Shown here piece after piece: positions 667 to 9,873 of a stretch of 10,478 nt of DNA (position 1 is its first letter; the number at the start of each line of letters is the position of its first letter). The DNA is from Patescibacteria group bacterium. Its GTDB lineage: Bacteria > Patescibacteriota > Dojkabacteria > SC72. A program made the translations under genes and the position numbers. The stretch is from the NCBI GenBank assembly GCA_003518125.1, contig DOZG01000089.1:1-10478 (forward strand), given 5' to 3'. Below the pieces are notes generated by a model. That model made no database searches and was not told the DNA's origin. It saw only the letters and a list, made by a program, of their open reading frames with translations.

Positions 667-943
667 ATAGAAGAAAAGCCTGAGTGTCTACCTGTATTAG
701 CAAAACTCACCTCTTTCTCATTCACAAATTCCCATAGAATTCGGATATCACCTGTAACTCTTGAACTATATACTTTCCCTAAAGACAGATTGACAGTATG
801 TTTTAAGACCATTAGAGAAAGGATCTTCTTGGAAATTTTTCATATGCATTACACATTTCCTTGTTCTTCTTTGTAATTCTCTTCTTACTTAACTTAGGAA
901 GCTTATACTTCTTAAAATCAATCTTTGGCATTTTAAATTGCAT
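657..943 (-). pseudogene. RelE/ParE-like toxin gene broken by two one-base indels
   Basis: No intact ORF exists here, but three frames join into a plausible 94-residue protein. It starts at ATG 943 (MQFKMPKIDF..., then ITKKNKEMCNAYEKF), shifts near 832 (one extra C) into QEDPFSNGLK, and shifts again near 801-804 (one extra A) into HTVNLSLGKVYSSRVTGDIR. It ends with ILWEFVNEKEVSFANTGRHS and a TGA at 657-659. The pattern 'R-V-T-G-D-I-R-I-L-W' followed by 'N-T-G-R-H-S' is like the C-terminal strands of RelE/ParE-family mRNA interferase or gyrase toxins ('RVTGDYRI... IGTHSELY'), and the size fits. Its start lies 10 bp after the ABC gene's stop on the same strand; its end overlaps fmt by 10 bp. 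No antitoxin partner is visible. The family call is from memory of the fold's motifs, so moderate. Sequencing indels are an alternative to real decay. Confidence 0.55.
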
Positions 944-953
944 TCTCTTTTTC

Positions 954-3188
954 TTACTCATATCTTAAAGCATCAAGGGGAGCCATTTTAACTGCACGAC
1001 CAGAAGGATAGAGCCCTGTTAGAAAACCAACAAATGTTCCAATAATTACAATGGTCAACATTAAATATAATGGCAAGAAACTTACCGTAATATAACCCCC
1101 ACCTCTACTTACTGAAAAAAGGGAGAGAGTAACAGATACAAAAAGACCCATAAACATTCCAAGAACAACTCCTAGAACAGCTCCTGTAATACACATAATC
1201 ATTGATTCGTTTATAAACAGACTACGAATCTCATCTGCTTTCATACCAATGGTTTTCATAAGACCAACCTCACGAGTTCTTTCAAGTAGTGAAACTGTCA
1301 GAGTATTAAACATTCCAAGAATAGCTATAGATAATGCAATTGCACCTACAACCAGTAAACCAATCTTAGCATATGAAAAGAGATTCTCTACTTCTGATAC
1401 AGTATCCATAACAGAGGTTGTTTCAAAACCTAAAACCTCTATCTGTCTTCTAATGTCAATGATCTGACCTTCTTTTTTAATTGTAATTCGCAGTTGAGAA
1501 AACTCAGTTATTCCAAAATCTTCTAAATCTAATATTGGAACATAAACAATAGATGGATTACTATCTTCCACCACACCAGTAATGGTATAGCTTCTCTCAC
1601 TTTCAACAGAATCTTCCTCTGTTTCTTCTTTAACAATCTCTGATAGTACAAAATCAATATTAATATTCTTTCCTATAGCATCGTTTGGCAAAATACCAAT
1701 TGTTGTTAGAAATTCTGCATTTACAACCACTTCTTTCTCGTCTTCTTTAAAAATCTCTCCTGCAGACAATATTATTGAGGAGTCTTCAATATACTTTGCT
1801 TGTACTCCATATACCACAACATCTGTACTAGACTTCTCGAATTCAACTCTTGCTGCAAGGTTAACTAATGGCATTACCTCTTGTACACCTTCAATATCGC
1901 TAATAATTTCGAGATTAGAAGCATCCAATAAAACATTACTACTTACAGTAGGCATAATGTCAACCTGTCTCATATCTTCAATACGAGTAACCTCATCAAT
2001 AACAAGTCTTTCTAAACCATAACCTAAGGATAGTAAGAATACTATAAATCCAATACCTATAGATATACCTATGATTGTTACTGAAGTTCTAGATTTCTTA
2101 ACCCAAAGATTTCTAAATGATATTTCAGTTAGGTCCATAGAGTTGATACTAGATGATATCTTTCCACTCAGAGTATTATCAAATTTCCTACATAATCGAG
2201 CAAATGTCTGTTTGAATTTCAACGCTTGATTAGCAAAAAAAACATTTCTCCTACCAAGAGTTTGAAGGAATATCAACCATATGAAAAAAATGCTCTGAAA
2301 AAGGAATCTAAGGTTAAATGTTATTGCATATCTTAATTTCTGGAATATATTTCTCTTCTTTATATCTTCACTACTATTAATTGTTCTAGGAGGATTGGTA
2401 GGACTCTTTTCAATAGTGGTACCTGATTCTATAAATGTTTTTAAATCTGCAGATATTTCTTTTTGTATAGTATCAGCATTTGCTTCTGTTACGGAAATCT
2501 CTTTTCTTATACGACCATCAAGCATTAATATAACTCGATTTGCCGATTTAAGATACTCTGGATTATGAGTAACCATGATAATTGTTTTCCCAGCCTTGTT
2601 TAATCTCTTTAAAAGGTTTATCATTTCTTGTCCACTTTTTACATCAAGGTTTCCTGTTGGCTCATCTGTAATTATTATCCTAGGATCCGTCATTAGGGCT
2701 CTAGCTAATCCTATCTTTTGTTGTTCACCAGCAGACAATTCACTTGGGATATATTGTGTTCTAAAATCCATACCAACAGTTTTAAGAACTTCTCTTGCTT
2801 TTTCTTGTGCTTCTTCTTTTTCTAAACCGATAAGTTGTCCAGAGAAAGCAAGATTTTCTACAACACTTAGAGACTTAATCCAGTTTTGTTGTTGGTACAT
2901 GATTCCTATCTCTCTTTTACGTATGACTGCTCTCTCTTCAGTACTCATTGTCCATAGGTCCATACCTTCTAGTTTTACAATACCTGCATCTGGTCTTTCA
3001 AGTCCCATGATTACATGGAGGATAGTACTTTTACCACAACCTGATGGACCGAATACAACAAGGAATTCACCATCATGAATATTTAAGCTTACATTTCTAA
3101 GAACTCTAGTATACCTATCTCCGGTTTCGAAACTTTTATATATGCCTTTGATAGATATAATTGTTTTCTTTGGTGGTACAGTTTTCAT
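954..3188 (-). CDS. MacB-like ABC transporter: ATPase fused to FtsX/MacB-type permease
   Basis: This 744-residue inner-membrane protein carries a full ATPase and a permease in one chain, as in MacB. ATPase domain, about residues 8-235: Walker A GPSGCGKST (47-55), Q-loop near 99-102, signature LSAGEQQ (151-157), Walker B IIITDEP (171-177) and switch His in MVTHN (H208). A charged linker leads to an additional hydrophobic stretch (about 291-311). The permease follows: TM about 368-390, an extracytoplasmic region about 395-600 (MacB periplasmic-core-like), then three TMs about 608-632, 663-690 and 704-728, ending APLDALRYE. Type VII ABC proteins of this kind work as mechanotransmitters or export lipoproteins, peptides and toxins; the substrate here is unknown. 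The start is ATG at 3188 with no clear Shine-Dalgarno. It lies 20 bp after the surface-protein gene, so co-transcription and a role in that protein's envelope function are plausible inferences. The hydrophobic stretch before TM1 is unlike standard MacB. Confidence 0.9.
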   Translation of the reverse strand: MKTVPPKKTIISIKGIYKSFETGDRYTRVLRNVSLNIHDGEFLVVFGPSGCGKSTILHVIMGLERPDAGIVKLEGMDLWTMSTEERAVIRKREIGIMYQQQNWIKSLSVVENLAFSGQLIGLEKEEAQEKAREVLKTVGMDFRTQYIPSELSAGEQQKIGLARALMTDPRIIITDEPTGNLDVKSGQEMINLLKRLNKAGKTIIMVTHNPEYLKSANRVILMLDGRIRKEISVTEANADTIQKEISADLKTFIESGTTIEKSPTNPPRTINSSEDIKKRNIFQKLRYAITFNLRFLFQSIFFIWLIFLQTLGRRNVFFANQALKFKQTFARLCRKFDNTLSGKISSSINSMDLTEISFRNLWVKKSRTSVTIIGISIGIGFIVFLLSLGYGLERLVIDEVTRIEDMRQVDIMPTVSSNVLLDASNLEIISDIEGVQEVMPLVNLAARVEFEKSSTDVVVYGVQAKYIEDSSIILSAGEIFKEDEKEVVVNAEFLTTIGILPNDAIGKNINIDFVLSEIVKEETEEDSVESERSYTITGVVEDSNPSIVYVPILDLEDFGITEFSQLRITIKKEGQIIDIRRQIEVLGFETTSVMDTVSEVENLFSYAKIGLLVVGAIALSIAILGMFNTLTVSLLERTREVGLMKTIGMKADEIRSLFINESMIMCITGAVLGVVLGMFMGLFVSVTLSLFSVSRGGGYITVSFLPLYLMLTIVIIGTFVGFLTGLYPSGRAVKMAPLDALRYE

Positions 3189-3208
3189 ATTGGCTGATAT
3201 TTCATTAA

Positions 3209-6200
3209 TTATCTTAAGAAATCGAATATACTTATAAGAGAAATCGTTACACTTTCAAAGACTGTAAGATTACTCTTGGGAGTGATAGAAATCATTGGAC
3301 CATACTCTCCTATATTACCAGCAATATCATCACTTACAAGTTTCAGATGGTAAACTTTGGAAGGAGTTAAATTAGTAAGTACAATACTATGTTTCGTTCT
3401 TAATTCAGAATTAATATTAGTACTACTAGAATATGTTCCCATTGTCCCCTCTCCATATTCTACTCTACTTGTCGCTGGTTCATCAGTTTCCCAAGATACA
3501 ATTAGTTGAGCACTTCTACTTTTCTCTGACTGAATTGTCCTACTTATCAAATCTCCTACGACACGAGCATTAGAGATGACTGGTGGTCTTGTATCTGTAG
3601 CTGTTGTGAATGTAATAGTATCAGAGAAAGCTTTGTTCCCCATACTGTCAACCCCTTCTACTGTAGCATAGTATTTAGTTTCAGGTATCAAATTGGTTAA
3701 ATTCATACTGTGTAAACCACTTATATTCTCCAGATCTATCTGATCCATTTCAATATCGCCATCTATTTCTCCATAATTAATAACTGAGGTAATTTTTGTA
3801 TTACTTTTCCAAGTAAATGTTACTGTTGGACTTGCCACCCCCTTTAACTCTTCAACTCTTACATTCGAAATACTTGGTCTTGGAGGTGTAGTAAAAGTAT
3901 GATCTTCTATTGAATCATATGAATAACCCTCTGAATCAATTAATCTAATCTTGTAGTGATATGTAATCCCATCTTCAAGATCAGAGATAATTACAGAGTA
4001 TTTACTAACCACTGGAGATGTATTTACCTCTTGCAGTCCACCATATGATGAGGTCTTTCCATAGACTACTTGTGCCATATCTGCACCAACTAGAGTCATA
4101 TCTAAAATGGCATAATCTAAACTAACCTTACTAATTTTTGAAACTCTCACCGTAGGCATAGAGGAGGTCTTAAATGACATTTCATTACTGATTCCCACAT
4201 TACCATCTTCATCCATCCACTTAGATCTAAAGTAGTAAACAGTTTCAGGATCAAGACTAGTTAGATTAATACTATGTGAGGTTAACATATTAGAATTTCC
4301 GATTTCTTCATCAAAGTACTCACCACTCTCTATTCCATACTGAATACGAGTATCACACTCCCTGTCAGTTACCCAATTGATTGTAGCTCTTCTAGTGGAA
4401 ATATTTGTAACCATTGGTTGAGATATGACAGAAGCAGGTTCAGTAAATTTCCCATCTGGATACATACCTACTACAGACGAAAATGCACTACAATTGTTCG
4501 CACTATCACAAGCTTTAACTTTGTAAAAATGCTCTTCTTGAGTTAATCCTACAATTACATATGAAATACCTGAAGTAGTCCCTTCTAAAGTAAAATTCTC
4601 ATCATCAGTAGAATGATATATTTGATAGTACTCAATACCTACACCAATATCTTCTGGCTCTTCCCAAGATACTACAAGTTTCCAACTACTAGTAGCTTTA
4701 ACACTTACATCAGCAATATCGATATTTAGTGGAATACTAGGAGCAGGTGTATCAGCTACAAAAGTAATACTTGCATGTGAACTGTAGTTGACATTACCTG
4801 CTTCGTCTTTAGCTACAACATAGAAGGTGTTCGTAGAAGGTTGTATAGCAAATGAATCTGCATCAAGCGAAGAAGAATCTGCCCAATTACAAATAATTGA
4901 GGAAGGGACAGAGTTTACGGTGTAGCAATATGAGAGTCCACTTTCTTGACCAGCATAGGTTACAGGAGTCTCCCAGCTAAAAGCAAAAGAGTTCTCAGTA
5001 TTGCTCTCAGGTGTTACTTGGAGATTTTGAGGCTCAGTTGGAGCAATTCCAGAATATTTCAATATCGCCGTTATATTCGTATCTGTTACATTACACGCAT
5101 TGTCATATGTTCTAAAGTAAAAAGTACTCTCACCTACAGAGAGAGTATCAAAATCAGAATCGAGAGTATATGAACCAGTAGTGACTAAATCACTACAATC
5201 CTGAGCCCCACTATGATTACTGCCATACCAAGTACCCCCACTTTCAATCTTGTATTGATATCCCTTTACTCCAGAAACGCTATCCTGCGCAGCAGTAGCT
5301 CCTGTTGTTGACCAATATACCGTTATATTCTCAATCTCATTTTGATATGTTTGAGGACTAGATAAACCAGTAGGATTAGTAGGATCTTCACTGTCATATT
5401 GATATGTAAAAAAGGTGTAATCGTCTTCTGCATTAGTATATACATTTCCAACATTGTCATATGTCTGAATTCTAAGATAGTAAGTAGAGCCAGAAACAAG
5501 CGCAGGGGGAGTGAAATAATCGTCTTCCTGGGCGCTACCATGAGTAGATGGTATAGCGGTATCGTCAGTACCCCAGTACACATAATATCCTTCTACTCCA
5601 CTTGTATATCCAGAGTCGTCTACAGTGTCAGTTGCTCCCACCCATTCGAAATATGGTGATTCATAGTTATAGTAATATTCTGTACCCGTTTGTATTTGTA
5701 AAGCTTTACTACCCTCGCTATACCCACTTAGTGTAGTTGGTTGTATAGGGTCTCCTATCTCCTCCACATACACTCCTGTATCTGCCATATCTATCCAGCC
5801 TGTGTCTATAGACCATACATTTCCTTGGAATTGTCCAGTAGTAGTATTAATCGAAGCATCGTTGTTGTAGTTATCAAAATCCAATATGGATCCAGTATTG
5901 ATAACAGAAGCAGTACCTACTAAATCACCACTAGCATACACTACAGTTACACCTGTAAAGTCTATCCACCCTAGATCTTCTGACCATGCATATCCACTTA
6001 GTGTACGAATATTGGAATTCCCTGGATCCGGATCCGTTATCGTTACATTAGAGCTATATGTCAAGGTAAAATCTAAGGTTGCACCCGTATTAACCATATT
6101 AGCTAATCCTCTGATAGGTGTAGGATCACCTGCAAAAATTGTGATTGAGAGTATTATGGCAGTTATAAGAATAGGTACGATAACAAGAAACCACCTTAGT

Positions 6201-6223
6201 TGTCTGAAGGCGGACTTTTTCAT
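3209..6223 (-). CDS. Exported multi-domain fibronectin type III-like surface protein
   Basis: A 1004-residue protein with an N-terminal signal/anchor: basic MKKSAFRQLR, then a hydrophobic core at about residues 11-31 ending near FAGDP. Two copies of a short motif follow, GYAWSEDLGWIDF (about 77-89) and GNVWSIDTGWIDM (about 134-146), of a 'GYAWSENIGWI' type seen in CPR surface proteins. About eight Ig/FnIII-like modules of 90-110 residues follow, roughly 160-275, 278-390, 395-490, 495-590, 595-688, 690-780, 783-875 and 880-982. The later ones share 'T-R-V/I-x-Y-G', 'H-S-I-x-L-T-x-L-x-P-x-T-x-Y-Y/H' and 'D-x-x-G-N' strands. There is no LPXTG or obvious catalytic site; the C-terminus is a short hydrophobic tail (FESVTISLISIFDFLR). 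The probable role is adhesion or an envelope scaffold; partner unknown. ATG 6223 is chosen because the signal peptide begins there. The ABC exporter gene follows 20 bp later. Antisense ORFs inside it are composition artefacts. Confidence 0.85.
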   Translation of the reverse strand: MKKSAFRQLRWFLVIVPILITAIILSITIFAGDPTPIRGLANMVNTGATLDFTLTYSSNVTITDPDPGNSNIRTLSGYAWSEDLGWIDFTGVTVVYASGDLVGTASVINTGSILDFDNYNNDASINTTTGQFQGNVWSIDTGWIDMADTGVYVEEIGDPIQPTTLSGYSEGSKALQIQTGTEYYYNYESPYFEWVGATDTVDDSGYTSGVEGYYVYWGTDDTAIPSTHGSAQEDDYFTPPALVSGSTYYLRIQTYDNVGNVYTNAEDDYTFFTYQYDSEDPTNPTGLSSPQTYQNEIENITVYWSTTGATAAQDSVSGVKGYQYKIESGGTWYGSNHSGAQDCSDLVTTGSYTLDSDFDTLSVGESTFYFRTYDNACNVTDTNITAILKYSGIAPTEPQNLQVTPESNTENSFAFSWETPVTYAGQESGLSYCYTVNSVPSSIICNWADSSSLDADSFAIQPSTNTFYVVAKDEAGNVNYSSHASITFVADTPAPSIPLNIDIADVSVKATSSWKLVVSWEEPEDIGVGIEYYQIYHSTDDENFTLEGTTSGISYVIVGLTQEEHFYKVKACDSANNCSAFSSVVGMYPDGKFTEPASVISQPMVTNISTRRATINWVTDRECDTRIQYGIESGEYFDEEIGNSNMLTSHSINLTSLDPETVYYFRSKWMDEDGNVGISNEMSFKTSSMPTVRVSKISKVSLDYAILDMTLVGADMAQVVYGKTSSYGGLQEVNTSPVVSKYSVIISDLEDGITYHYKIRLIDSEGYSYDSIEDHTFTTPPRPSISNVRVEELKGVASPTVTFTWKSNTKITSVINYGEIDGDIEMDQIDLENISGLHSMNLTNLIPETKYYATVEGVDSMGNKAFSDTITFTTATDTRPPVISNARVVGDLISRTIQSEKSRSAQLIVSWETDEPATSRVEYGEGTMGTYSSSTNINSELRTKHSIVLTNLTPSKVYHLKLVSDDIAGNIGEYGPMISITPKSNLTVFESVTISLISIFDFLR

Positions 6224-6229
6224 ATGTAT

Positions 6230-6258
6230 AATATAACCTAAAGATGCAGAAAGCTCAA
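6230..6258 (-). promoter_or_regulatory. Putative sigma70-type promoter of the surface-protein/ABC operon
   Basis: On the minus strand, a -35-like TTGAGC (6253-6258) is followed by a 17-nt spacer and a -10-like TATATT (6230-6235). The -10 ends only 6 nt before the ATG at 6223, so transcription would start at or next to the start codon. No Shine-Dalgarno is visible. Assigned by eye against the TTGACA/TATAAT consensus. Confidence 0.35.
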
Positions 6259-6316
6259 ATAACTAATAGGAATATTCATATAATTTCCTTCTATACATAT
6301 ACCCAATGTTAATAAA

Positions 6317-6322
6317 TATAAT
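6317..6322 (+). promoter_or_regulatory. Putative -10 element upstream of the reverse transcriptase
   Basis: A perfect TATAAT ends 8 nt before the ATG at 6331, which I take as the true reverse transcriptase start. No good -35 is seen at 16-18 nt upstream, and there is no Shine-Dalgarno. The short distance suggests a leaderless or near-leaderless transcript. In such AT-rich DNA a chance TATAAT is possible. Confidence 0.35.
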
Positions 6323-6330
6323 TAATATCT

Positions 6331-6456
6331 ATGTTTTATCTCAAAGAACTAACTAAAGCCTACACTACATGTAGGAAACACAAAAGAACAAGTATAAACG
6401 CCATCAATTATGAAATATCTTGGGAAAGAAACATCTATACTCTTATGAAAAACTAA
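6331..6456 (+). pseudogene. N-terminal segment of the DGR reverse transcriptase, frameshifted from the core
   Basis: ATG 6331 opens MFYLKELTKAYTTCRKHKR, continuing TSINAINYEISWERNIYTLMKN and a stop at 6454-6456. This is the expected N-terminus of a DGR reverse transcriptase: 'AY..CRK.KR...NA..FE...E.N...L...L'. The core reading frame (CTA at 6453, LKKKSYSPGRS) continues the same protein if one A is added to the five-A run at 6448-6452, or if the ribosome slips back one base there. The local heptamer, read in frame, is G-AAA-AAC. It resembles but does not match the classical A-AAA-AAC slippery site. Genuine mutation, recoding and assembly error cannot be separated from sequence alone. Confidence 0.75.
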
Positions 6457-7289
6457 AGAAAAAGAGTTATTCCCCTGGTCGATCAATATGTTTTGCTGTA
6501 AGTTACCCTAAAATTAGAGAAATATTTGCTTCAGACTTTAACGATAGAATCTTACACCATCTTCTAATAAACCGAATTGAACCATATTTTGAAAAACGAT
6601 TCATATTTGATTCGTGCGCATGTAGACCTAAAAAAGGTGGACATTTTGCTGTAGAGAGGTTGAGACTTTCCGAAAGAAATATTACGAAGAACCATACTAG
6701 ACAGGCATACTCTTTACAACTGGATATAAAAAGTTTCTTTTACAATATCAATAAGCAGATTCTAATGAACATACTGATTCATACTTTATACAAATCTGAC
6801 TTTGGTGACGAGGAATTTGAAGAGGATCTATGGCTTGCTCATAAAATCATATTCCATAATCCATGTAATAACTACAAACTCAAAGGAGATATGACTCTGC
6901 TCGAGAGTTTACCAAAACACAAATCTCTCTTTAATATACCACCACACAAAGGGCTACCAATTGGAAACCTAACCTCCCAATTCTTTGCTAATGTTTATCT
7001 TAATGAACTATACCAATTTATAAAAAGAGAACTAAAATTTAAATACTACATTAGGTATGCAGATGATATGGTACTACTAGATACCGATTACAAGAGACTA
7101 GAGAGGACTATATATATAATTAATGATTTCCTTATCAATCGTTTAGATCTTGAGTTACACCCTAACAAAACGAAACTTAATAGTATATATTCTGGAATGG
7201 ATTTTCTAGGATACATAGTTAAGACCAGGCTACGTTCTTACAAGAAGGAGAATTACACAAAACTTAAAAAAGAAACTGTACTATTTTAA
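6420..7289 (+). CDS. Diversity-generating retroelement reverse transcriptase, catalytic core frame
   Basis: DGR reverse transcriptases copy a template-repeat RNA into cDNA with errors at adenines; the cDNA then replaces the variable repeat in the target gene. The open frame is 289 codons, but the protein-like sequence begins near LKKKSYSPGRSICF (6453 on); the ATG at 6420 lies in the wrong frame for the conserved N-terminus, which is in frame from 6331. Visible motifs: FAVSYPKIREIFASDF and HHLLI; the first catalytic Asp in LQLDIKSFFYNI; the DGR-type motif IGNLTSQ, where group II intron enzymes have QGxxxSP; the active-site YADDMVLL; and HPNKTKL with GMDFLGY in the thumb-proximal part. The frame stops early at 7287-7289; the homologous C-terminus continues in frame 1. 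The core is intact and all active-site residues are present. It faces the avd, TR and target genes from the opposite strand. Confidence 0.92.
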   Translation: MGKKHLYSYEKLKKKSYSPGRSICFAVSYPKIREIFASDFNDRILHHLLINRIEPYFEKRFIFDSCACRPKKGGHFAVERLRLSERNITKNHTRQAYSLQLDIKSFFYNINKQILMNILIHTLYKSDFGDEEFEEDLWLAHKIIFHNPCNNYKLKGDMTLLESLPKHKSLFNIPPHKGLPIGNLTSQFFANVYLNELYQFIKRELKFKYYIRYADDMVLLDTDYKRLERTIYIINDFLINRLDLELHPNKTKLNSIYSGMDFLGYIVKTRLRSYKKENYTKLKKETVLF

Positions 7290-7545
7290 TAGTGGATTTC
7301 TCCTACTAGAAACTAATTGTAAAGAAGAAGCAGTAGCTATACATAACCCACCAACACAAGATGAGATACAGAGTATATGCAGAAGTATAAATTCTCTTTT
7401 GGGACATATTACTTGAAGTAATAGCTACAACTTCAGGCAGGATATTTACCATAATCATTTGGGAATACTTGAACAATATTTAGAACCACAAAATAATCTT
7501 ACTTCTTACAAAGTTTTAAAGAAGAAAGTTAATACTTCTGATTAG
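7270..7545 (+). pseudogene. C-terminal segment of the reverse transcriptase, after a second frameshift and with an in-frame TGA
   Basis: Past the core's six-A run (7266-7271), frame 1 reads KKLYYFNSGFLLLETNCKEE and on to SICRSINSLLGHIT, then TGA (7414-7416), then SNSYNFRQDIYHNHLGILEQ and a TAG at 7543-7545. The stretch 'S-I-N-S-L-L-G-H-x-x-(stop)-S-N-S-Y-N-F-R' matches the usual DGR reverse transcriptase tail 'S-x-N-S-Y-L-G-x-x-K-H-x-N-S-Y-x-L-R-K'. Deleting one A from the run restores the frame, so this shift exactly compensates the one near 6450. With both repaired, and the TGA read through, the protein is about 404 residues, a normal size. The end overlaps the convergent avd stop by 17 bp. 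Confidence 0.7.
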
Positions 7546-7885
7546 CCCATTTGTACCATCCTTTAAGCATTTTTTCAATTTCAACCTCGTGAAGAATAAT
7601 AAACTCCATTTGTTTAGGACTAAAAAGTTTAAGCTTAAATGCCATGTGTAGTTTTAAGATTAATCTCTCGAAATTTCCACAAGCTCTCTTTATGTAAGGT
7701 TTCTTTTTTGTATTGGGAAGGTTGTTAGCAAATACAATGTCATCTAATGTTTCCCATCCAGATTGAAGAATATTCTCCCCTAAGGAGTATTTATACTCCT
7801 TAGGAAAGTTGTGTACTAGGGTGTATAAATATTTAATAAATTTATACATAGCTAAGTACAGTTTTGGTTTGTTTGCTAAAGTCAC
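7529..7885 (-). CDS. avd: DGR accessory variability determinant (Avd-like four-helix protein)
   Basis: Avd proteins form small basic pentameric four-helix bundles that bind the reverse transcriptase and the template RNA and are needed for mutagenic cDNA synthesis. This 118-residue product is helical and strongly basic. It contains 'H-N-F-P-K-E-Y-K-Y-S-L-G-E-N-I' near residues 25-39, a match to the family's 'FPKsqRftLG..i' signature, followed by helices with KKPYIKRACGNFERLILKLH and ending GWYKWANQKY. The start is GTG at 7885; GAGGG at 7895-7899 lies 9 nt upstream, a good Shine-Dalgarno, and it is inside the end of TR. The same frame stays open upstream through the whole TR to a stop at 8030-8032 but offers no ATG. 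The position beside TR supports the call; the related 23S rRNA intervening-sequence protein family is the main alternative. Confidence 0.8.
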   Translation of the reverse strand: MTLANKPKLYLAMYKFIKYLYTLVHNFPKEYKYSLGENILQSGWETLDDIVFANNLPNTKKKPYIKRACGNFERLILKLHMAFKLKLFSPKQMEFIILHEVEIEKMLKGWYKWANQKY

Positions 7886-7891
7886 AATTGT

Positions 7892-8016
7892 TGTCCCTCG
7901 GATACACCTAACATAGTTATTATTAGACTTATTATTGTTATTGGTATTTCCATTATTTAGATTGACGTTCCAGGCGTTATGGCGATTATTATTGTTCTCA
8001 CTGGACGACCAGAAGT
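7892..8016 (-). repeat. DGR template repeat (TR)
   Basis: This is the invariant master copy, transcribed to RNA and reverse-transcribed with adenine-directed errors. It aligns without gaps to VR (8328-8452, offset 436) over 125 nt with 18 differences; 17 of them fall on sense-strand adenines (T on the plus strand) and one on a sense C (7926). The outer 26 nt (7892-7917) and 20 nt (7997-8016) are identical to VR; the former corresponds to the initiation-of-mutagenic-homing end. Read in the target frame, the centre is dominated by 17 AAY codons (for example ENNNNRHNAW), the hallmark of a DGR template. It has 49 sense adenines, of which 17 differ in VR. Orientation is the same as target and avd. 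Confidence 0.96.
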
Positions 8017-8318
8017 CGGAATATTCTTGTTAATTTTTATTACTCACTGAGAGCCTGATATTTAGAAAAGATCTCTCTGTATCACAATACCACTTGGGTA
8101 TAACAAGACGGACATCAGTTGTGCCTTTCTTTGTTATCCATTGCTATTTCGGTAGTTGTGATAACAAACTCTTGCACGTTTATATACTGCCATATACATT
8201 TCTAAATTACCATGGAGTTATAGTAATTTGTTAGAACATATTTATTTAAATTAAAAATTACAAACCGTCTACAAAGTTTAAGGAAGAAGATTGTATAAAC
8301 CCTATAGTAAAAAGCAGG
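8017..8318. other. Spacer between TR and target gene, no coding content seen
   Basis: About 300 bp without a credible ORF on either strand. The target-like frame upstream of TR (YEQ, then SDFWSSSE) is blocked by a stop at 8030-8032, so TR is not part of a second target gene. The stretch contains a 9-bp inverted repeat with an inner UUCG-loop stem (8130-8168) and a weaker gagag/ctctc hairpin (8049-8053 with 8073-8077). The part next to the target stop (8281-8318) contains no convincing T-tract terminator. It is likely the 5' leader of the TR RNA. Confidence 0.5.
8130..8168. repeat. Inverted repeat / stem-loop with inner UUCG tetraloop
   Basis: TTTGTTATC (8130-8138) is perfectly complementary to GATAACAAA (8160-8168). 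Inside it, CTAT (8144-8147) and GTAG (8152-8155) close a TTCG loop (8148-8151), with one T-G wobble in the plus-strand RNA. No T-run follows on either strand, so an intrinsic terminator is unlikely. The location, between the target gene and TR, suits a folded segment of the template RNA; function is inferred only. Confidence 0.6.
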
Positions 8319-9338
8319 TTATTCTGATGTCCCTCGGATACACCTAACATAGTAAGTAGTAAACTTATTATAGTAAGAGGTAGAACCATAATTTAGATAG
8401 ACGTACCAGGCGTAATGGCGAGTATTAGTGTACTCACTGGACGACCAGAAGTTATTTACAGCATTCGGTAGGTTATTTGCACTACCATCTATGTATGCCT
8501 GCATTAACTGCTTCTGTGTAGGAAGGTACCAGTCCGTCTCTACACCTGTTGTTCCATCATCATCCAAATCTGCATTATCTCCATCTAACTCTAGATTTAA
8601 ACAGAACTCTGCAGCTGATACATCATCATCCTCTGTAATAGCATCTGTAGGGTCTCTATTATCACAATATGCATTTGCTGTACCTGTTGAAAGGAAGTTA
8701 CAAGATGTAGAAGTAGGAGTTACTGGATCATCCCCTATCTCCCACTGAAATTCATTATCTAAAGCTGTAGCTGCTTTATCTGACCAATACAATCCTGTAA
8801 GAGCATCCTGATATACCTTGTTTGAAGATATATTAACTGTAATGGCATTGTCGGTTACTGATACTGCTGTACCACCATCTGCTGTGAGTGTCCATGTAGA
8901 CTCTTCAGAAGTATTCTCATTAACTGTACCTGCACTTGCTAACCAATCATCATACCTACAATCCTTCTGTTCATCATATTTTCCTACTATAGCGGTTCCT
9001 GTTTTAAGTGTACGGTCAGATCCTGCATAGAAGGTATATGATGGAAGAACTTGTGATTCTGTAGCTGTAGCTGTTGATGGTACCCATTGCGCTGATGATC
9101 TTATTCTATTCCAATATGCTCCCCAATCTCCCCAAGCCCCTGCACTCTCTGATCCATGGGTAAGTGTTACTAAGAAGTCATATGTTGCTTTTATTCTTGA
9201 GTCTGTACCAGAATCTGGTGTAGATCCACTTTGTTCTGCAAATACACTAAAAGTTGCAAATGGTAGACCACCACATAGGATTACTGCAAGAATTAGCACT
9301 AAAGAAAAGTTATTAATCTTCTTTTTATTTTTCTTCAT
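8319..9338 (-). CDS. DGR target: secreted DUF1566 / C-type-lectin-like protein with variable C-terminus
   Basis: This 339-residue protein starts at ATG 9338 with a signal peptide: MKKNKKKINN, hydrophobic core about 11-33, and a likely cleavage near VFAEQ. The middle (about 40-170) is Ser/Thr-rich and unrecognised. From about 175, DALTGLYWSD, then an Asp-rich stretch (237-267), DWYLPTQKQLMQAYID (269-284), NNFWSSSEY (295-303) and YYVRCIRG (329-336) give the DUF1566 (Lcl C-terminal-like) pattern 'TGLxW... WxLPTxxEL... YWSSS... RCVRG', a C-type-lectin fold used by many DGR targets. VR codes residues 297-337. The 17 adenine-derived variable sites are 303-306, 309, 312, 314, 316, 317, 319, 321-324 and 327-329, while W298, W311 and the RCIRG end are fixed. 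The likely role is a cell-surface binder of changing ligands (host, prey or phage). It has the same strand as TR and avd, which lie downstream. The start is supported by the signal peptide. Confidence 0.9.
   Translation of the reverse strand: MKKNKKKINNFSLVLILAVILCGGLPFATFSVFAEQSGSTPDSGTDSRIKATYDFLVTLTHGSESAGAWGDWGAYWNRIRSSAQWVPSTATATESQVLPSYTFYAGSDRTLKTGTAIVGKYDEQKDCRYDDWLASAGTVNENTSEESTWTLTADGGTAVSVTDNAITVNISSNKVYQDALTGLYWSDKAATALDNEFQWEIGDDPVTPTSTSCNFLSTGTANAYCDNRDPTDAITEDDDVSAAEFCLNLELDGDNADLDDDGTTGVETDWYLPTQKQLMQAYIDGSANNLPNAVNNFWSSSEYTNTRHYAWYVYLNYGSTSYYNKFTTYYVRCIRGTSE
8328..8452 (-). repeat. DGR variable repeat (VR) in the target gene
   Basis: This is the copy that receives mutagenised cDNA. 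Compared with TR, sense-strand changes at adenines are A to T (11) and A to C (6), none A to G, plus one C to T at 8362 (Ser to Phe, residue 326). Of the 17 AAY codons of TR, eight became Tyr, four Thr, two Ser and three stayed Asn. The 26 nt at 8328-8353 are identical to TR and sit just before the stop codon, the expected position of the initiation-of-mutagenic-homing sequence. Confidence 0.96.
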
Positions 9339-9346
9339 TATCTATT

Positions 9347-9375
9347 ATTATTACCTTAAATCACTTCTAGGTCAA
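9347..9375 (-). promoter_or_regulatory. Putative promoter of the DGR target gene
   Basis: On the minus strand, TTGACC (9370-9375) is followed by a 17-nt spacer and AATAAT (9347-9352). Each hexamer matches 5 of 6 consensus bases. The -10 ends 8 nt before the ATG at 9338, so the transcript would have almost no leader. A separate TATAAT (9385-9390) lies further upstream without a good -35. Confidence 0.4.
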
Positions 9376-9579
9376 CTATTTCTAATTATAAATATCTTTC
9401 TCTCCCAAAAGTATATACCAACTCGGTACAAATATGTTAGCATTAAATTCTAACCCGCTATTTCTAACTCTTTCCTTTTTATCCTTTACTCATAATTTGT
9501 ACCTTCGATATTCTGTGTGTAATATTCTTGATTGATGAGACATACACCTATTATCTCAACCAAAGATGAACTGAAAGCT
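9376..9579. other. Intergenic region between the DGR target and rnpB, with inverted repeat
   Basis: No convincing gene. GGTACAAAT (9425-9433) is perfectly complementary to ATTTGTACC (9495-9503), extendable to about 12 bp with a one-base bulge. The 61-nt interval contains a smaller GTTAG/CTAAC stem (9436-9440 with 9450-9454). I see no clear intrinsic terminator for rnpB. The stretch could hold rnpB's 3' processing or termination signals or regulatory sites for the target gene; nothing more can be supported. Confidence 0.4.
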
Positions 9580-9873
9580 GCGCAAGTATTCAATAAGCCG
9601 AATTCTGTATAACGATGGTTATCTATCTATGCGGTTTAACCTTGCTCCAGGAAGGGGTTACCACGCGATAGTATATTACTACACTACCCGGTAGTCTCTT
9701 ACACTACCATTTCACCCTTACCTAACAAGCGGGCAATGCTTAGTTAGGCGGTATAACTTTCTGTTGCCCTTTTATCCGAGAGATCACTCCCTCCCAACTC
9801 TCGTTGGTTCCATTTACGGAGTCCGGACTTTCCTCACCTATTATCTAGGCGCAACCATCTAAAATACTTGCGC
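9580..9873 (-). ncRNA. rnpB: RNase P RNA, type A-like but shortened
   Basis: This is the catalytic RNA that removes the 5' leader from pre-tRNAs. On the minus strand the 5' conserved block GAGGAAAGTCCGGACTCC lies at 9818-9835, and the 3' block ACAGAATTCGGCTTAT at 9593-9608; together they form P4. GGAGCAAGGTTAAAC (9634-9648) is conserved region IV, and GTAAGGGTGAAA lies before a P12 stem. P1 pairs 9863-9873 with 9580-9590 (11 bp), P2 pairs 9853-9859 with 9614-9620 (7 bp), and P3 is the CCTA/TAGG hairpin at 9837-9849. These pairings set the ends. At 294 nt it is shorter than the about 377 nt of E. coli. Only 25 nt separate conserved regions IV and V, so P15-P18 appear to be absent. It begins 14 bp downstream of the DUF4349 gene on the same strand. 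Confidence 0.96.

What the first reader, a model, noticed from the sequence alone, without database searches (positions are those of the whole stretch)
6331..9338. A complete diversity-generating retroelement with a secreted lectin-fold target
Reverse transcriptase (YADD, IGNLTSQ), Avd-like protein, TR and VR all lie within 3 kb. TR and VR differ at 18 of 125 positions, and 17 are on template adenines (17 of 49 adenines changed, against 1 of 76 other bases). The target has a signal peptide and a DUF1566/C-type-lectin-like C-terminus holding the VR. DGRs are known to be common in CPR and DPANN genomes; this particular target and its ligand are not something I recognise.
Basis: partly seen in the sequence, partly recalled or inferred. 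Interest (0 to 1): 0.9.

Follow-up and report, generated by a model that had tools for sequence, protein, structure and literature searches.

The report
Diversity-generating retroelement with a broken engine
This bacterial genome holds a diversity-generating retroelement, whose template and variable repeats differ almost only at adenines of the template, but its reverse-transcriptase gene is split by two frameshifts and a stop codon, so it has likely only recently stopped rewriting its target, a predicted secreted lectin-like protein.

Summary
The repeat observation holds exactly: template 7892-8016 and variable region 8328-8452 differ at 18 of 125 positions, 17 on template adenines (17 of 49 A, 1 of 76 others). 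Avd, target and its C-type-lectin fold are supported. "Complete" is not. Against intact relatives the RT gene (6331-7545, +) lies in three pieces: frameshifts at about 6444-6450 and 7216-7222, and an in-frame TGA at 7414 at a conserved Trp; an Asp found in 119 of 119 relatives is Tyr. In about 29 kb of homologous coding sequence sampled from the same assembly the only frame breaks lie at runs of N, and no other RT was found in this 83%-complete genome. The RT protein is otherwise normally conserved and the repeats differ at one non-adenine, so inactivation looks recent. RT facing the other genes is the published "inverted" layout. The DGR lies in an 8.9-kb block, with an FN3 protein and a MacB-like transporter, absent at that place in one genus-mate. 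RT-disrupted DGRs with intact repeats were published in 2012. Unexplained: every changed codon-position-1 adenine became T and every changed position-2 adenine C, so those residues became only Tyr, Thr or Ser.

The parts
667..9578 (.). block of about 8.9 kb (ABC, FN3, RT, avd, TR, target) between the formyltransferase gene and RNase P RNA, absent at that place in same-genus genome G001
   Evidence: G001 L061: RNase P 6270-6561 followed at once by the formyltransferase ORF 7522-6563
954..3188 (-). MacB-like ABC transporter with FtsX permease domain, open frame
   Evidence: PF00005, PF12704, PF02687; stop TAA, no internal TGA
3209..6223 (-). large FN3-repeat, probably secreted surface protein, open frame
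   Evidence: PF00041; long homologues are followed by a MacB-like ABC gene in 5 of 5 loci L050-L054
6331..6444 (+). RT gene, first piece (frame 1), start to about codon 38
   Evidence: tblastn with P0002, P0003, P0004, P0005, P0012
6444..6450 (+). RT lesion 1: frameshift
   Evidence: relatives pass from frame 1 to frame 3 about here
6450..7216 (+). RT gene, middle piece (frame 3; within mechanical ORF 6420-7289) with IGNLTSQ 6960-6980 and YADD at 7056
   Evidence: PF00078 4.8e-20, PHROG RT 7e-77
7002..7019 (+). NELYQF: Tyr at a position that is Asp in 119 of 119 listed relatives
7216..7222 (+). RT lesion 2: frameshift
   Evidence: frame 3 stops matching relatives, frame 1 resumes at 7219
7219..7545 (+). 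RT gene, last piece (frame 1), C-terminal part
   Evidence: 84% identity to P0002 residues 297-397
7414..7416 (+). RT lesion 3: in-frame TGA at a position that is Trp in P0002, P0003 and P0004
7529..7885 (-). avd, open frame (GTG start), 3' end overlapping the RT gene's 3' end
   Evidence: PF22296 above cut-off; PHROG Avd
7889..8016 (-). template repeat (TR), 17 AAY codons in the frame of the target
8017..8101 (-). degenerate target-like sequence upstream of TR
   Evidence: target residues 267-338 match 7889-8101 at 44% with one stop
8325..8452 (-). variable region (VR), C-terminal codons of the target
8319..9338 (-). target gene, 339 aa, open frame; signal peptide by eye; Lcl_C/DUF1566 C-terminus
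9579..9870 (-). RNase P RNA, right border of the block
   Evidence: RF00010, 169 bits

Best explanation
This is a diversity-generating retroelement whose reverse-transcriptase gene is disrupted by two frameshifts and a stop codon, so that mutagenic copying of TR into VR has likely stopped, and likely recently. Before that (inferred from the family) RT and Avd copied TR RNA with errors at adenines and the cDNA replaced VR, changing the binding face of a predicted secreted C-type-lectin-fold protein. Shown: adenine-biased TR/VR differences, three RT lesions in this assembly, open avd and target frames, the block's absence at this place in one genus-mate. Inferred: loss of RT function, its recency, secretion and ligand binding, and that the target now works as one fixed variant.
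For: TR/VR bias P = 2e-7. P0002, P0003, P0004, P0005 and P0012 each give three RT pieces in two frames with TGA. In the same assembly, 37 G001 ORFs matched at 50% identity or more over 29,169 nt; the three frame breaks found were all at runs of N, and the six alignments with '*' were, by eye, upstream of start codons, at an N gap, or an ORF antisense to a longer one; if three lesions fell at random over this sequence plus the RT gene, all three would lie in RT with chance 6e-5. The window holds no N. The protein database holds the same 289-aa ORF with a longest contig of 23,065 bases, longer than this 10,478-base contig; whether that is an independent assembly is unknown. Only one RVT_1 match in the held genome. 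Recency: one non-adenine difference in 77; P0001 and P0002 have 5 and 5 private changes where P0003 and P0004 agree.
Against: Lesions rest on one assembly; reads could not be seen. The genome is 83% complete, so another RT could be missing. Apart from one invariant Asp, the RT protein shows little decay (2 departures in 63 columns at 95% conservation; 13 of 119 relatives have as many), which also fits a working gene plus assembly errors. The own-assembly sample is 33 of 98 contigs and its frame-break search was limited to G001 homologues.
Confidence: 0.75

Rival explanations
1. The DGR is intact and active in the population; the RT lesions are assembly or consensus errors, or a minority allele caught by the assembly.
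For: RT protein has as many private changes as its intact relative P0002 (5 against 5) and most conserved columns are kept; lesion 1 lies next to a run of A.
Against: No similar lesion in about 29 kb of homologous coding sequence sampled from the same assembly; by eye lesion 2 is not in a homopolymer, and lesion 3 is an in-frame stop, not a frameshift; the same 289-aa ORF is in the protein database with a longer contig.
Confidence: 0.16
2. The RT gene is dead but another RT acts on this TR in trans, so VR still varies.
For: Genome 83% complete; avd, TR and VR are present.
Against: One RVT_1 match in the held genome; neither of the two same-genus genomes searched has a match to this RT.
Confidence: 0.06
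3. The three RT pieces are joined by programmed frameshifting and stop read-through.
For: All pieces keep good identity to relatives.
Against: 20 of the 23 sequences examined show no such frame break, several of them cut by contig ends; six other window genes (two cut by the contig ends) hold 43 TGG and no internal TGA.
Confidence: 0.02
4. TR and VR are an ordinary gene duplication, not a DGR.
For: Target-like sequence extends upstream of TR.
Against: 17 of 49 adenines against 1 of 76 other bases changed; Avd and an RT with DGR motifs lie beside them.
Confidence: 0.01

Closest known systems
RT-inactivated DGRs (Schillinger 2012, PMC3521204: Ruminococcus gnavus nonsense, Acaryochloris insertion, Bacteroides frameshift)
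   Same: RT disrupted by frameshift or nonsense, TR/VR differing only or nearly only at adenines, read there as very recent inactivation (section read)
   Different: Three point lesions in one RT gene here, in a likely Patescibacteria genome
'Inverted' DGRs (Schillinger 2012 group 4; 'G5' cassette in PMC6642488)
   Same: RT on one strand, TR, VR and target on the other
   Different: Here avd too lies opposite RT; L006, L033 and L036 also show RT facing avd
Patescibacteria DGR clade 2 (Roux 2021, PMC8144416)
   Same: Cell-encoded; the paper reports lower-than-average activity for clades 2 and 3
   Different: Clade membership by RT phylogeny not tested here
Bordetella phage BPP-1 DGR (PMC3240598, passages)
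   Same: avd, TR, and VR at the 3' end of the target gene (recalled in part)
   Different: No strong hairpin after VR here, which BPP-1 needs; RT inverted and broken
Legionella Lcl C-terminal domain (8q4e)
   Different: 22% identity in that alignment; whether that protein is DGR-diversified was not examined

Membership tests
Diversity-generating retroelement | TR/VR pair with differences confined to TR adenines | tested here: met
   17 of 49 A against 1 of 76
Diversity-generating retroelement | DGR-type RT sequence ((I/V/L)GxxxSQ, YxDD) | tested here: met
   IGNLTSQ and YADD in the middle piece; PHROG reverse transcriptase 7e-77; NCBIfam gave only other RT models, all below cut-off
Diversity-generating retroelement | intact RT open reading frame | tested here: not met
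   two frameshifts and a TGA
Diversity-generating retroelement | Avd accessory protein | tested here: met
   below the NCBIfam cut-off
Diversity-generating retroelement | VR at the C-terminus of a C-type-lectin-fold target | tested here: met
   (fold from a predicted model)
Diversity-generating retroelement | hairpin downstream of VR (BPP-1 type) | tested here: not met
   MFE -1 kcal/mol, z +1.69; 5 of 9 other loci have z <= -2.4, 4 of 9 do not
Diversity-generating retroelement | ongoing adenine-specific VR variation | not testable with these tools
   needs reads
RT-inactivated DGR (Schillinger 2012) | disrupted RT with only A differences in VR | tested here: met
   with one non-A difference

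The most novel reading that the evidence does not exclude
The lineage froze its receptor: after a VR was selected whose 17 template-Asn positions are only Tyr, Thr, Ser or Asn, the RT and the VR hairpin were lost, turning a hypervariable lectin into a fixed adhesin carried on a surface-protein/transporter block.
Probability: 0.12. Interest if true: 0.6.

Novelty: new member of a known kind. Interest (0 to 1): 0.36.

Why it matters
Surveys that count RT plus TR plus VR as a working element would count this one as active. Split RT frames also appear at L019 and L026, so dead RTs might contribute to the low activity reported for Patescibacteria DGRs (untested). If reads confirm it, the locus is a datable case of a hypervariable receptor becoming fixed.

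Tried and rejected
TGA as a sense codon: six other window genes (two of them cut by the contig ends) have no internal TGA and 43 TGG; TGA ends 1 of 25 sampled alignments that reached a stop, so as a stop it is rare but present. Rejected.

Assembly-wide indel errors: the three frame breaks in the sample were all at N runs. Rejected as a general cause, within that sample.

Relaxed selection on RT: little sign of it (2 departures in 63 columns at 95% conservation, mean of others 0.55, 13 of 119 relatives with 2 or more; private changes 5 against 5). This goes against an old pseudogene and is why I call the loss recent.

Further VRs or TRs: none in the held genome. A 24-base TR/VR pattern in viral contigs: 0 matches. 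Papers with 'diversity-generating retroelement' and 'FtsX': 0 in the held library. Target against PDB by sequence: none at E <= 1. Avd against PDB: 8 sequences at E <= 1, the best PRDM9 zinc fingers (5.6e-4, 23 residues), taken as spurious.

Hairpin loss as proof of decay: 5 of 10 tested sequences have one with z <= -2.4 (L006, L018, L025, L029, L036); the window, L016, L019, L023 and L027 do not. L027 is cut short and L029's lies about 40 bases from VR. Too mixed to carry weight.

Mobile-element ends for the block: no target-site duplication seen by eye; no systematic search was made.

Full report
Observation. TR 7889-8016 and VR 8325-8452 on the - strand are an ungapped repeat. TR finds no third copy in the held genome. 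In the target's frame TR has 17 AAY codons; of 42 codons 17 differ, 16 non-synonymously.

RT. The + strand gene matches relatives of about 400 aa (P0002 74%, P0003 67%, P0004 64%, by the middle ORF) in three pieces: frame 1 from 6331 to about 6444, frame 3 to about 7216, frame 1 again from 7219, with TGA at 7414 where P0002-P0004 have Trp. The open 289-codon frame with YADD is only the middle. An Asp found in 119 of 119 listed relatives is Tyr. In a sample of the same assembly (32 other contigs plus the window, 192,098 bases) 37 of 260 G001 ORFs matched at 50% identity or more, over 29,169 nt; the three frame breaks were at N runs. Split RT frames were seen in 3 of 23 sequences, the window, L019 and L026; several others are cut by contig ends, and L034 and L036 come from one genome.

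Timing. One non-adenine difference in 77, and RT protein changes equal to those of an intact relative, argue that the RT died recently. PMC3521204 reasons the same way for its own cases (passages, and sections 8 and 15 read).

Layout. RT faces avd; target, TR and avd share the other strand. L006 (a MAG titled Candidatus Woesebacteria), L033 and L036 also have RT facing avd, and L006 and L036 hold TR and target in the same arrangement. L029, L030 and L032 have RT and avd on one strand. Inverted DGRs are published.

Block. In same-genus G001, RNase P RNA abuts the formyltransferase gene; in the window 8.9 kb lies between them. In the other same-genus genome, G002, the contig ends inside RNase P, so it says nothing. 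G006 has a transposase-like ORF at the same junction (recognised by eye). In G014 the ABC gene, target, TR and avd follow one another, and FN3 and ABC genes are adjacent on another contig. FN3-ABC pairs occur at 5 of 5 loci with long FN3 matches, L050-L054; G034, G016, G021 and G008, four of those five genomes, are not among the 26 genomes with an RT match, so the pair is not tied to DGRs. FN3-like stretches also lie near RT or target at L006, L019, L031 and L056.

Error spectrum. Over 128 bases the changes are A to T 12, A to C 6 and A to G 0. Of 24 sequences searched, 11 rows gave a pair; leaving out the window and counting G012 once (L018 and L035 are the same locus), nine other pairs give 44, 32 and 70 (my sum). 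By codon position the window has T in 11 of 11 changes at position 1 and C in 6 of 6 at position 2; none of the nine others does. At the 17 template-Asn positions homologues carry Tyr, Asn, Ser or Thr for 62% of letters; the window has 17 of 17, the next best of 54 aligned proteins 15 of 17, so it is the extreme of a family tendency. This was noticed after the fact; selection and an altered error spectrum cannot be separated.

Papers. PMC8144416: outline, abstract, passages, sections 8 and 10. PMC6642488, PMC3240598 and PMC5006420: passages only. Others were seen as listings. The host's Patescibacteria placement is inferred from names of relatives, not tested.

Noticed in passing
8325-8452: All changed position-1 adenines became T (11 of 11) and all changed position-2 adenines became C (6 of 6), with no A-to-G; nine relatives' pairs are mixed.
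   Followed up: partly
7883-7900: TR ends 3 bases before the avd start codon, and a Shine-Dalgarno-like AGGGA 8 bases upstream of that codon lies inside TR's 3' end (read by eye).
   Followed up: no
L029 1113-1468: avd of G013 matches in two frames, so it may be broken too.
   Followed up: no
L056 2004-2854: Target homologue in G032 matches in two frames, beside an FN3-like stretch.
   Followed up: no
L063 4560-5024: Transposase-like ORF (by eye) sits between RNase P RNA and the formyltransferase gene in G006, the junction where the window's block lies; L006 has a similar-looking ORF at 9012-9695 beside its target.
   Followed up: partly
L019 and L026: RT genes of G106 and G096 are split between two frames; L019 keeps a TR/VR pair with 15 A changes and no other change.
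   Followed up: partly
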